Shown: piece after piece, positions 3,238 through 26,121 of the stretch | Layout: every line of letters begins with the position of its first letter | Numbering within the stretch: position 1 is the stretch's first letter | Source: an uncultured Candidatus Actinomarina sp. | GTDB taxonomy: Bacteria; Actinomycetota; Acidimicrobiia; Actinomarinales; Actinomarinaceae | Assembly (NCBI GenBank): GCA_902627635.1 | Contig: CACOKA010000003.1 | Span: forward strand, 1 to 54,726 | Length of the DNA: 54,726 nucleotides | Reading direction: 5' to 3' | Notes under the pieces: generated by a model | The model's input: the letters and a program-made list of their open reading frames with translations, nothing else | What the model was told of the DNA's origin: nothing | Databases searched by the model: none | Position numbers and translations under genes: made by a program

Positions 3238-5092
3238 TCTCTAAATTTGAAATTGCAGACAAGCTCTTTTTTTCTGTATAAAGAGTATTTCTTAAATAAG
3301 GCTTCTTTTTACTTTTCTCAATAAGTTCAACAAATTCTATATCAGTTGTGTGCTGACCGTGATCAGCACCTGAAGCTCTACTAATATTTTCATTGATTAG
3401 TGTTCCACCAAGGTCATTTACACCTGCATGAAGTAGTTTTGAGGCACCATCGTGTCCCAGTTTTACCCAACTTGCCTGAATATTATCGATTGAACCATAA
3501 AAATAAATTCTTGCAAGAGCATGGATTAGGGTTACTTCATCCCAAGTAGGTCCTGGCATACTTTTTCCTTGAAGAAAAATTGGTGAACCCATGTGAACAA
3601 AAGGCAATGGAACTATTTCAGTAAAGCCCTTAGTTCTCTTTTGAATCCTTTTAATTAAATCAAAATGATTAACCCAAGATTTTATATCATCAATATGACC
3701 AAACATAATTGTTGCTGTAGATTTAATTTCTAAAGAATGGGCCACTTCCATAACATATCCCCATTGTTCAGATGTAATTTTATCTGGACATAAATATTTT
3801 CTTATTCTGTTATCAAGTATTTCAGCTGCTGTACCTGGTAGTGTATTTAATCCTGCATCCTTAAGTAAGTTTAGGTAATCTTCGACACTTAAATTTATAG
3901 TTTCAGCACCCTGCCAAATTTCTAACGGAGTAAATCCGTGTATATGTATATCAGGTATTTCTTTTTTAATCTGTTTTACAAGTTCTAAATAAAATTTACC
4001 AGTGTACTCAGGATTAATACCCCCTTGCAAGCATACTTCAGAAGCTCCGTCGTTAAAAGCTTCAACACTTCGTTTCACAACTTCTTTTGGCTCCAAATTG
4101 TATGGTTTTTCTTTGAGGTTAAGACTTTTTGGTCCTTTGGAGAATCCACAAAAGCCACACTTAAAATAGCATTGGTTTGTGTAGTTAATATTACGATTTT
4201 TGACAAAAGTTACATCATCTTTATTAATTGAACGATTTAAATTATCTGCAACTTCTGCGATTTTGTTTATGTACTTACCGGACGTTTTAAAAAGTTCTTC
4301 TAGTTCATCATTACTAATTTCATTTCCTTCTTGAGCTTTAGATAAGATTTTTTCAAAATTAGTTGATTTGAAGGATGATGAAACGTTATATGTTAATCCA
4401 TTTAGTTTAGGAATTTCCTTTCCAGAGCCTGGAGACCAATTTGTAGGAAATCGTTTATAACCTCTTACATCTCGTAATTGTAAAAAATTAGTAAATTGAA
4501 TTTTTGATAGTAATTTTCGAGCTTTATTTACATCAACAAGAGAAAATAGTGTTCTCTCGAATAATTCGAAGTTTGAATTATTTTTTAATTCTTTTATCTC
4601 TTTATAACTCCAGTCTCTTAGCCAAAGATCTTCCACTCCTTTTGCCATAGATTCCTTTGCCTCCTCTATGGAGTTAACATATTTTGAAATTTTAAAATTA
4701 AGTGAAGGTTGAATACTCTTTAAAAATTTTATGTTTTCTAAATCTGTAAGAAGTACATAGGATGGATTTAATCGTGTAATTACGTCCATGTCATTTTCTA
4801 AATTATTAGAGGATCTATAAACTATCCTAAGGGAATCAACATCTTCAAATTCTTTCCAGTTTTTGTAAGTTACAAACCATTGAAATGACTCATCAAGTTT
4901 GTTGTCTGAAATTGTTTGAAAATCTTTTTTATGTATTTTTTCAAGATCAACTGGTTTGTCTATATAAAAAGATGAAGTTCCCTCTTTTTTTCTTGAATTT
5001 AAATAAATTTCATTATCTGAATCACATGGACGAATCCTCAGAAAAGATATGTTATTTTGTAAATTCATGTTCTTTTGGGTATCCATTTTCAT
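3221..5092 (-). CDS. cofH: FO synthase subunit CofH (radical SAM) with about 290-aa N-terminal extension
   Basis: CX3CX2C (CYFKCGFCGF), LQGGINPEYTG, IHGFTPLEIWQGAE, LPGTAAEIL, HDGASKLLHAGVNDLGGTL. Confidence 0.9.
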   Translation of the reverse strand: MKMDTQKNMNLQNNISFLRIRPCDSDNEIYLNSRKKEGTSSFYIDKPVDLEKIHKKDFQTISDNKLDESFQWFVTYKNWKEFEDVDSLRIVYRSSNNLENDMDVITRLNPSYVLLTDLENIKFLKSIQPSLNFKISKYVNSIEEAKESMAKGVEDLWLRDWSYKEIKELKNNSNFELFERTLFSLVDVNKARKLLSKIQFTNFLQLRDVRGYKRFPTNWSPGSGKEIPKLNGLTYNVSSSFKSTNFEKILSKAQEGNEISNDELEELFKTSGKYINKIAEVADNLNRSINKDDVTFVKNRNINYTNQCYFKCGFCGFSKGPKSLNLKEKPYNLEPKEVVKRSVEAFNDGASEVCLQGGINPEYTGKFYLELVKQIKKEIPDIHIHGFTPLEIWQGAETINLSVEDYLNLLKDAGLNTLPGTAAEILDNRIRKYLCPDKITSEQWGYVMEVAHSLEIKSTATIMFGHIDDIKSWVNHFDLIKRIQKRTKGFTEIVPLPFVHMGSPIFLQGKSMPGPTWDEVTLIHALARIYFYGSIDNIQASWVKLGHDGASKLLHAGVNDLGGTLINENISRASGADHGQHTTDIEFVELIEKSKKKPYLRNTLYTEKKSLSAISNLENVIKL

Positions 5093-6218
5093 TAACTACA
5101 CTACTTACTTTTTCATAAATACTTGGGCTTAACCAGTCTTTATTTATATACGAAGGATAGACAGGTAAACGAGGGATAAGATTTTGATCTGTTTGTTTAA
5201 TTACATTTTTAAGTTCGATTAGATTTGGCCAATTATGATCTGGATTTACCCAATCAATTGTTTTTGGAGATATTCCTCCAAGATCATTTATTCCAGATTT
5301 TAAGAATAATTCTATATTGCTTGCTAAATTTGGGGGTATTTGTAATGAAATATGATTTGGCAAAAATAACCGTGTTGTTGCAATAATTCTCATAAATAGG
5401 TCGTTTACAATTTCTGAATGGTTCTTCATTAGTGTATTTTGCTTGGCTCTGAAATTTTGAAGTATCACTTCCTGAATCGATGTATTTACTTCGCAGGTTT
5501 TAATAAGTTGATATATGTCTTGAATGATTTCATTTTTAGTATCAGTAATTCCCAACAATAGACCAGTGGTCATTGGATATTTTTCACTCATTGCATTTTC
5601 AAGAGTTTCTAATCTTAAGTTTATATTTTTAGTTTTTGCCCCATAATGTGCTTTACCTTTTTGAGATAAATTTTTTGAAAAGGATTCAAGCATTAAGCCC
5701 CCAGATGGTGATTGTTGCCTGTATTCTTTAATTTCGTTTCTTGACATTAAACCAGGATTAATATGGGGAAATAAATGGTATTTTTCATTCACTCTTTTTG
5801 CATTTTCAATCAAGTAATCAAAAGTTGTACTAAAACCTAATCGTTCTAGCTCCTCTTTTGCAAAAGACCATTTAATTTCTGGTTTATCCCCGAGTGTAAA
5901 AAGAGCTTCAAAACATCCTGATTTATCTCCCACATTTGCGATAGCATCAACTTCTTCAAATGTAAGATATGTACCTCCATCTTTGGGAGTTTTTACAAAA
6001 GTGCAATAAGCACAAGCGTCCTGACATAATGTTGTTAAAGGGATAAATACTTTAGGACTATAAGTAATTGTTTTACCAAAATTTTGAACTTTAACATCAT
6101 AGGCTTTATCAAGTAACTCTGAAGTTGGCATATTTCCAAAAATATAATTTTCAATTTTTTTATCTAAAGTAGACATAATTTTCAACAATTCGATAATATT
6201 ATGATTTGATTGTACCAA
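5052..6218 (-). CDS. cofG: FO synthase subunit CofG (radical SAM); likely start at ATG 6176
   Basis: CQDACAYCTF CX3CX2C motif; GGLMLESFS; FLKSGINDLGGISPKTIDWVNPDHNWP; the track start at 6218 is a TTG. Confidence 0.9.
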   Translation of the reverse strand: MVQSNHNIIELLKIMSTLDKKIENYIFGNMPTSELLDKAYDVKVQNFGKTITYSPKVFIPLTTLCQDACAYCTFVKTPKDGGTYLTFEEVDAIANVGDKSGCFEALFTLGDKPEIKWSFAKEELERLGFSTTFDYLIENAKRVNEKYHLFPHINPGLMSRNEIKEYRQQSPSGGLMLESFSKNLSQKGKAHYGAKTKNINLRLETLENAMSEKYPMTTGLLLGITDTKNEIIQDIYQLIKTCEVNTSIQEVILQNFRAKQNTLMKNHSEIVNDLFMRIIATTRLFLPNHISLQIPPNLASNIELFLKSGINDLGGISPKTIDWVNPDHNWPNLIELKNVIKQTDQNLIPRLPVYPSYINKDWLSPSIYEKVSSVVNENGYPKEHEFTK

Positions 6219-24505: not shown

Positions 24506-25702
24506 ATGCCTGAAATAAATTTAAAATATAGCAACAAAGAAATAATTGATAACTTCTTTGAAAACTTAACTTGTGACGAATATCAAGAATCTATTTTTAA
24601 AGGTGGTCAATCATATGCTGATCATGCTTTAAACAACCTGGATATAAATGGTTATGCAAAGAAACGAAATAATGTATACCCAAGCGAAAAAAGAGGTTCC
24701 TCTTATTTATCTCCATACATAAGACATGGACTATTAGGTTTAAAAGAAGTTTGGGATTATGTTGAGAACTTTGATTATCAAGATAGAAATAAATTCAGAG
24801 ATGAACTTTTATGGCAGGAATTTTCGAGACATTTATACGCAATAATTGGAAGAAAAAATAAAGAATTTTTAAATTTTTACATTAAAAATGATCCTGGTGA
24901 AATAGTTCAGAATCAGAAAATGAATTGTATTTCTACAATAGAGAATGAGCTTGAATCAACAGGTTACATGGTTAATCAAACAAGAATGTGGTATTCATCT
25001 CATCAAATGTTCAGAACAAGTAACCAGTGGCAAGAATCAGAGGATTATATGTATAAACACCTTGTAGATGGTTCCAGATTTGCTAATAGACTTGGCTGGC
25101 ATTGGGTAATGGGATCACAAACGGGCAAAATTTATGGATTTTCAAAATTCCAAGTAAAAAAAAGAGCACCAAAAATATGTAACGAATGCCAATTACAAAA
25201 TGAATGTCCAATTGAAGACTGGCCAAAGGTTATGAGCATATCAAACAAAGATATAGAAATAGATTTAAATATAGAAAACAACTTCGGGCCACAAACAATA
25301 TTAACTTCAAATGAAAAACCACATTATGTTTGGATCAACGGAGAATCACTAGGAGATGAGGATCCAGCACTTAGTCACTTTTCAGAACTTCCAGTCATAT
25401 TTATATTCGACAAGGGCCTATTAAAAAATCTAAATTTATCTACTAAAAGAATTAACTTTTTATTAGATACTCTAAAAGAGATAAATGAGAAGCGAGAGCT
25501 GACAGTATATTTAGACAACCCAGAAAATGTATTAATGAAAAAAAAGTATGCGTCCACTTTTGCTCCCGTACCAAAATATAAGAAGATTACTAAAAATGCA
25601 AAACCAACTGTAGAGTTCCCAGCAAAAAGATTGATTGCTCCAATAAATTTTTATCCTCGAAGTTTCTCTGCATGGAGAAAAAAAACAAAAATGGCGTTAT
25701 GA
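24506..25702 (+). CDS. Photolyase/cryptochrome-family protein with apparently permuted domain order and a four-Cys set
   Basis: FAD-domain motifs at N-terminus (SSYLSPYIRHGLLGLKEVW, FRDELLWQEFSRHL, STGYMVNQTRMW, EDYMYKHLVDGSRFANRLGWHWVMGSQTG); C-terminal HYVWINGESLGDEDPALSHF...RINFLLDTL resembles the photolyase alpha/beta domain. Confidence 0.8.
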   Translation: MPEINLKYSNKEIIDNFFENLTCDEYQESIFKGGQSYADHALNNLDINGYAKKRNNVYPSEKRGSSYLSPYIRHGLLGLKEVWDYVENFDYQDRNKFRDELLWQEFSRHLYAIIGRKNKEFLNFYIKNDPGEIVQNQKMNCISTIENELESTGYMVNQTRMWYSSHQMFRTSNQWQESEDYMYKHLVDGSRFANRLGWHWVMGSQTGKIYGFSKFQVKKRAPKICNECQLQNECPIEDWPKVMSISNKDIEIDLNIENNFGPQTILTSNEKPHYVWINGESLGDEDPALSHFSELPVIFIFDKGLLKNLNLSTKRINFLLDTLKEINEKRELTVYLDNPENVLMKKKYASTFAPVPKYKKITKNAKPTVEFPAKRLIAPINFYPRSFSAWRKKTKMAL

Positions 25703-26121
25703 GAAGAAAAATAATATTTTTTATACTTTTTTTACACAATTACATATACATCTATTCCAAAGGTCGATTTGGAAAAACAATATCTGATAGACCATGTTTA
25801 ATTCTTGAAAGTGTTGGTGGGAAGACTGGAAAATTACGAAAAAACGTTCTTGTGTACCTTAGAGAGAAAGATAACATTTGTGTAGTAGCTTCTAAAGGTG
25901 GTAATCCAAAGAATCCAGGATGGTATCACAATCTTAAAAACAATCCAGATGCAACAATCCAAATAGGTAGAGAGAGATTTGATGTTACCGCTACAGAAAT
26001 CTTTGAACTTGAGAGAATTGAGTGGTGGAAAAAAATGGACTATATGAATAATGGCATATATGATCAATACCAAGGTAGAACAAGTAGAAAAATTCCAGTT
26101 ATGTTACTCAAAGTAACTTAG
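25699..26121 (+). CDS. F420 (deazaflavin)-dependent nitroreductase/Ddn family protein
   Basis: LILESVGGKTGKLRKNVLVYL, VVASKGGNPKNPGWYHNLKNNPDATIQIG; ATG 25699 overlaps the photolyase stop. Confidence 0.88.
   Translation: MRRKIIFFILFLHNYIYIYSKGRFGKTISDRPCLILESVGGKTGKLRKNVLVYLREKDNICVVASKGGNPKNPGWYHNLKNNPDATIQIGRERFDVTATEIFELERIEWWKKMDYMNNGIYDQYQGRTSRKIPVMLLKVT

What the first reader, a model, noticed from the sequence alone, without database searches (positions are those of the whole stretch)
24506..25702. Photolyase/cryptochrome-like protein with apparently circularly permuted domains
Seen: photolyase FAD-domain signatures occupy residues about 60-235, and the C-terminal third starts PHYVWINGESLGDEDPALSHFSELPVIFIFDKGLL...RINFLLDTLKEI, which resembles the usual N-terminal alpha/beta domain (VWFRxDLRxxDNPAL...FLLESL). 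Known: canonical order is alpha/beta then FAD domain. Inference: circular permutation or fusion in swapped order, possibly with altered antenna or DNA-repair specificity.
Basis: partly seen in the sequence, partly recalled or inferred. Interest (0 to 1): 0.76.

Follow-up and report, generated by a model that had tools for sequence, protein, structure and literature searches.

The report
Photolyase with swapped domains, known family
This marine actinobacterial gene encodes a probable light-driven DNA-repair enzyme whose two halves sit in the opposite order from the textbook version; the swap is real, but the family has already been described in cyanobacteria and other bacteria, so this is a new, well-conserved member and not a new kind of enzyme.

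Summary
Confirmed: the 398-aa gene at 24506-25702 (Ca. [quoted passage not shown] Pfam alone does not recognise the module here; profile-profile comparison with canonical photolyases (score 47 versus at most 21 in 200 shuffles), a bridge through Deinococcus relatives and a confident AlphaFold model do. The order is kept at full length in 71 of 395 sampled genomes of the class and in many other Actinobacteria. Fold order and cysteines match a published group: SPL/NewPHL proteins and picocyanobacterial Phr4/Phr5/Phr6. Conserved pocket residues favour cyclobutane-dimer repair over (6-4) repair; activity, antenna pigment and strand preference are untested. Added here: the Actinomarina orthologue, genus-wide synteny with ATGA overlap to an F420-dependent reductase gene, a split Deinococcus version, clade-wide pocket substitutions, and evidence that actinobacterial members of a group said to lack the alpha/beta domain carry it at the other end.

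The parts
24506..25702 (+). Reversed-domain SPL-type photolyase gene, 398 aa
   Evidence: ORF; relatives of the same length and order
24506..25225 (+). FAD-binding helical domain, about residues 1-240
24926..24928 (+). Codon of C141, first cysteine of the putative [4Fe-4S] site
   Evidence: invariant in 81 of 81
25178..25207 (+). Codons of C225, C228 and C234 (C-x2-C-x5-C-P)
   Evidence: invariant in 81 of 81; same spacing as Phr4 C254, C257, C263 in PMC9426592
25226..25315 (+). Linker, about residues 241-270
   Evidence: alignment, model
25316..25699 (+). C-terminal alpha/beta (photolyase N-domain-like) module, about residues 271-398
25699..26121 (+). F420H2-dependent quinone/nitro-reductase family gene overlapping the photolyase stop by ATGA; neighbour, not part of the enzyme
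   Evidence: PF04075 E 2.8e-37; overlap read; neighbour in 34 of 35 Actinomarina loci

Best explanation
The gene encodes a reversed-domain, iron-sulfur short photolyase-like (SPL) protein, the Actinomarina orthologue of a family common in Actinobacteria and apparently related to cyanobacterial Phr4/Phr5 and Phr6. Most likely it is a light-driven repair enzyme for cyclobutane pyrimidine dimers. FAD in the N-terminal helical domain is reduced through a tryptophan relay, absorbs blue light and passes an electron to a flipped-out dimer held by E100, W103, N157, M161 and W200. The four cysteines hold a [4Fe-4S] cluster that stabilises the domain and its DNA-facing surface. The C-terminal alpha/beta module is the usual antenna-type domain moved to the other end; it may carry 8-HDF or serve only as scaffold. 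Shown: domain order, conservation, cysteines, pocket residues, predicted fold. Inferred: cofactors, substrate, antenna, strand preference.
For: FAD domain; C-terminal module homologous to the canonical N-terminal domain; same order in relatives; four cysteines and pocket residues invariant in 81 sequences, mapped on E. coli photolyase by the alignment; same cysteine spacing and order as Phr4/5/6; genome already has a separate PhrB-type and a class II-like photolyase; FO synthase genes in the same window.
Against: No biochemical test. Three pocket positions differ from E. coli photolyase in the whole clade (Q104, Q158, S190 for R278, R342, D374). The third tryptophan of the classical relay is not seen. 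The authors of PMC9426592 predict (6-4) activity for Phr4/Phr5, and light dependence was not seen for it in E. coli after UV-C. No cyanobacterial Phr4/5/6 sequence could be aligned directly here.
Confidence: 0.72

Rival explanations
1. It is a (6-4) photolyase with reversed domains, as the authors of PMC9426592 propose for Phr4/Phr5 on the strength of the Fe-S cysteines.
For: The four cysteines resemble those of PhrB-type (6-4) enzymes; loss of Phr4/Phr5 matters more after UV-C than UV-B in Synechococcus.
Against: The CPD-pocket residues of class I enzymes, including E274 and W277 equivalents, are invariant, the FAD domain matches class I best, and the genome has its own PF04244 PhrB-type gene.
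Confidence: 0.15
2. It is a cryptochrome-like light or redox sensor without repair activity.
For: Clade-wide substitutions at R278, R342 and D374 positions; overlap with an F420-dependent reductase gene.
Against: Lesion-pocket residues stay invariant over 81 sequences, which a sensor would not need.
Confidence: 0.08
3. The C-terminal segment is an unrelated HUP- or Rossmann-type domain fused by chance, and its likeness to the photolyase N-domain is convergent.
For: PF00875 is sub-threshold for this protein; Foldseek also lists PPAT and universal stress proteins with similar E-values.
Against: Profile comparison far above shuffles; Deinococcus bridge in the same position, aligned over 107 columns; the family profile finds both ends of canonical photolyases in swapped order.
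Confidence: 0.05

Closest known systems
Picocyanobacterial Phr4/Phr5 and Phr6 (PMC9426592)
   Same: FAD domain first, photolyase-type domain last; four cysteines with the same C-x2-C-x5-C spacing; split and fused versions exist, as in Deinococcus.
   Different: One gene in Actinomarina, two in most Synechococcus.
Short photolyase-like proteins, SPL (Xu et al. 2021, cited in PMC9649867, PMC9178010, PMC9498864)
   Same: Class I-like FAD domain without an N-terminal alpha/beta domain; Fe-S cysteines in at least some. From memory, the tested member is from Rhodococcus fascians; a Rhodococcus orthologue is 42% identical here.
   Different: SPLs are described as lacking the N-terminal domain; here such a domain is found at the C-terminus.
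NewPHL / Phr7 single-strand CPD photolyases (Emmerich et al. 2020, cited in PMC13274461 and PMC9426592)
   Same: FAD domain first, inverted topology.
   Different: NewPHL-type sequences lack the cysteine motif, fall in a separate group, and their C-terminal region is not significantly similar to the module here.
Class I CPD photolyases (E. coli, Anacystis, Thermus)
   Same: Homologous FAD and alpha/beta domains, same lesion-pocket residues.
   Different: Opposite domain order, no Fe-S cysteines, R278/R342/D374 instead of Q/Q/S.
FeS-BCP (PhrB-type) (6-4) photolyases
   Same: Four cysteines in the FAD domain.
   Different: Canonical order with a PF04244 N-terminal domain, absent here; the genome has a separate PF04244 gene.

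Membership tests
Reversed-domain SPL / Phr4-Phr6 group | Class I-like FAD domain at the N-terminus | tested here: met
Reversed-domain SPL / Phr4-Phr6 group | Photolyase-type alpha/beta domain at the C-terminus | tested here: met
   sub-threshold in Pfam alone
Reversed-domain SPL / Phr4-Phr6 group | Four cysteines with C-x2-C-x5-C spacing | tested here: met
   spacing compared with PMC9426592
Reversed-domain SPL / Phr4-Phr6 group | Groups with cyanobacterial Phr4/5/6 or the characterised SPL in a tree | not tested
   no cyanobacterial or R. fascians sequence was obtained; the tree holds other relatives only
CPD photolyase | Lesion-pocket residues E274, W277, N341, M345, W384 (E. coli numbers) | tested here: met
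   mapped, invariant
CPD photolyase | Light-dependent CPD repair | not testable with these tools
   needs purified protein
[4Fe-4S] photolyase | Bound cluster | not testable with these tools
   only the cysteines are seen
NewPHL / Phr7 | No Fe-S cysteines, Z-domain at the C-terminus | tested here: not met
   cysteines present; C-terminal profiles not similar (0.3%)
FeS-BCP (PhrB-type) (6-4) photolyase | PF04244 N-terminal domain | tested here: not met
   no PF04244 match; separate gene has it
Circularly permuted photolyase in the strict sense | Same relative placement of both domains in three dimensions | not testable with these tools

The most novel reading that the evidence does not exclude
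Fe-S SPLs of the actinobacterial type are not primitive photolyases from before the antenna domain was gained. They carry that domain, somewhat trimmed, at the C-terminus, so the SPL/Phr4-6 group (and perhaps NewPHL) descends from two-domain photolyases by one domain transposition. This would weaken the published use of SPLs as the antenna-less root of the photolyase/cryptochrome family.
Probability: 0.5. Interest if true: 0.45.

Novelty: new member of a known kind. Interest (0 to 1): 0.3.

Why it matters
Reversed-domain photolyases are a natural experiment on how the antenna and catalytic domains cooperate. If actinobacterial SPLs keep the alpha/beta domain at the other end, the claim that SPLs are antenna-less ancestors of all photolyases and cryptochromes needs another look. 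The gene is also part of the probable UV defence of a streamlined surface-ocean lineage that carries three different photolyase-family genes in a genome of about 1 Mb.

Tried and rejected
Pfam and NCBIfam on the C-terminal segment alone: no significant hit. PDB sequence search with the module profile: best E 0.024, cryptochrome/photolyase N-termini, not significant alone. Scan of genome contigs with the single protein found nothing; the alignment query worked. Phages: only weak matches, mostly in the FAD domain. Plasmids gave the Deinococcus and NewPHL-type comparators. FAD-domain tree: the 19 actinobacterial-type sequences form one group (100/99) and the canonical ones one side of a branch (76/93); this allows one origin of the reversed order but does not prove it, because the outgroup branches are long and the root is unknown. 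DUF2256 as partner: next to the gene in 10 of 45 loci outside Actinomarina, but not detected in the Actinomarina genomes searched. The cold-shock query was mistranslated out of frame and is not used. Primary papers Emmerich 2020 and Xu 2021 were not held.

Full report
What is there. The gene at 24506-25702 (+) encodes 398 aa and lies on contig C3 of an 812,883-base assembly, about 77% complete. Close relatives are named Candidatus Actinomarina. The start methionine is invariant among 13 relatives. Downstream, overlapping the stop codon by ATGA (read), is an F420H2-dependent reductase gene (PF04075, E 2.8e-37). The order coaD, recG, bL28, this gene, reductase, HAD, ddl is kept in nearly all Actinomarina loci (reductase in 34 of 35) but in none of the 45 loci from other taxa.

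FAD domain. Residues 43-216 match photolyase FAD-domain models (PF03441 E 4.6e-8; photolyase_8HDF E 4e-12). A profile of 27 relatives hits Anacystis photolyase with E 3e-24 over positions 36-207. The AlphaFold model (pLDDT 93.2, pTM 0.92) matches class I and III photolyases with Foldseek probability 1.00.

C-terminal module. Pfam alone does not recognise it in this protein (PF00875 E 0.22), so stronger tests were needed. (a) hhalign of 27 modules against 19 canonical Acidimicrobiia photolyase N-termini gives score 47.1 and probability 93%; 200 column shuffles reach at most 21.0 and the reversed profile 13.4. The aligned part is 49 columns, strand 2 to strand 3. (b) The whole-family profile, run over 20 canonical photolyases, matches all their FAD domains with its N-terminal part and, in 15 of them, their N-terminus with its C-terminal part; these second matches are individually weak (i-E 0.0005 to 1.3) but consistently placed. 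(c) Deinococcus plasmid relatives have PF03441 at the N-terminus and PF00875 at the C-terminus (E 7e-4). Their C-terminal domain aligns to canonical N-termini over 107 columns (probability 96%) and to the module here (99%). (d) The module modelled alone (pLDDT 88.9) has a class II photolyase as best PDB match (E 4e-3, probability 1.00), followed by PPAT and universal stress proteins of HUP-type fold. Together these support a photolyase-type alpha/beta domain moved to the C-terminus and somewhat shortened.

Not an artefact. Matches occur in 41 of 59 genomes searched first, 29 of them of the same genus, the window's own included. In a sample of 395 genomes of the class I count 71 with a full-length match and six with fragments only. 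In genome contigs 520 stretches encode relatives; the best 80 include Rhodococcus, Pseudonocardia, Patulibacter, Conexibacter, Aeromicrobium, Mycolicibacterium and a Myxococcota MAG. In Deinococcus sp. QL22 the two domains are separate overlapping genes (L156, 2896-3669 and 3666-4187), paralleling the split phr4/phr5 of Synechococcus.

Residues. Across 81 sequences C141, C225, C228 and C234 are invariant, as are E100, W103, N157, R160, M161, W162, W175, D188, N194, W198 and W200. By the alignment to E. coli photolyase, E100, W103, N157, M161 and W200 correspond to E274, W277, N341, M345 and W384, which from general knowledge of class I enzymes line the CPD pocket; W175 and W198 correspond to W359 and W382 of the tryptophan relay. 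A third relay tryptophan is not evident; whether W162 substitutes is open. Equally invariant are Q104, Q158 and S190 where E. coli has R278, R342 and D374, so the pocket is uniformly altered in this clade; Deinococcus and canonical sequences keep WR and DGD.

Literature. PMC9426592 describes Phr4/Phr5 and Phr6 of marine Synechococcus and Cyanobium with FAD domain first and photolyase domain last, the reverse of all previously described photolyases, with cysteines C169, C254, C257 and C263; the spacing from C254 on equals that seen here. [quoted passage not shown] The original Emmerich 2020 and Xu 2021 papers were not held; that the tested SPL from Rhodococcus fascians had FAD, an Fe-S cluster and CPD activity is from memory.

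Function. The best-supported reading is a CPD photolyase with an Fe-S cluster. The genome also encodes a PhrB-type photolyase (PF04244) and a class II-like photolyase, so the three probably divide the work, for instance by lesion or by single- versus double-stranded DNA. An FO synthase cofH gene (window 3272-4318, over the NCBIfam cut-off) and a weaker cofG-like match (5853-6131) are in the same window, and PMC7771536 reports F420 synthesis in this order, so 8-HDF could be available as antenna. Nothing here shows that it is bound.

Evolution. In the FAD-domain tree the actinobacterial-type sequences form one group (100/99), NewPHL-type sequences another (100/100), and canonical class I sequences lie on one side of a branch (76/93). 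This allows one transposition for all reversed proteins but does not prove it. The C-terminal region of NewPHL-type proteins was not significantly similar to the module here (0.3%) and only marginally to Deinococcus (46%).

Verdict. What is added is membership of Actinomarina and many Actinobacteria, genus-wide synteny, clade-specific pocket changes, and evidence that these SPL-type proteins have kept the alpha/beta domain at the other end.

Noticed in passing
window 3272-4318 (-) and about 5853-6131 (-): FO synthase genes for F420/8-HDF: cofH (TIGR03551, 452 bits, over cut-off) and a weaker cofG-like match, about 20 kb from the photolyase gene.
   Followed up: partly
window 25699-26121 (+): F420H2-dependent reductase family gene overlapping the photolyase stop by ATGA and conserved beside it throughout the genus.
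   Followed up: partly
L156 2896-3669 and 3666-4187 (Deinococcus sp. QL22 plasmid): The FAD and alpha/beta domains are encoded by two overlapping genes, like phr4/phr5 of Synechococcus; the second is annotated as hypothetical protein.
   Followed up: partly
L030 78-1067 and 965-1432; L108 3504-3944: Outside Actinomarina a DUF2256-DUF3253 protein lies next to the gene in 10 of 45 loci; in L030 a flavin amine oxidase-like gene is also adjacent.
   Followed up: partly
G008, G013, G014, G020, G028, G032, G079 and G022 (same genus): Seven same-genus genomes show no match and one shows two copies; incomplete assemblies, real loss and mixed bins were not told apart.
   Followed up: no
L153 535-2076 (G000:C11) and L155 1237-2712 (G000:C5): Two more photolyase-family genes in the same genome: a PF04244 PhrB-type protein without the C-x2-C cysteine motif and a class II-like one.
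   Followed up: partly
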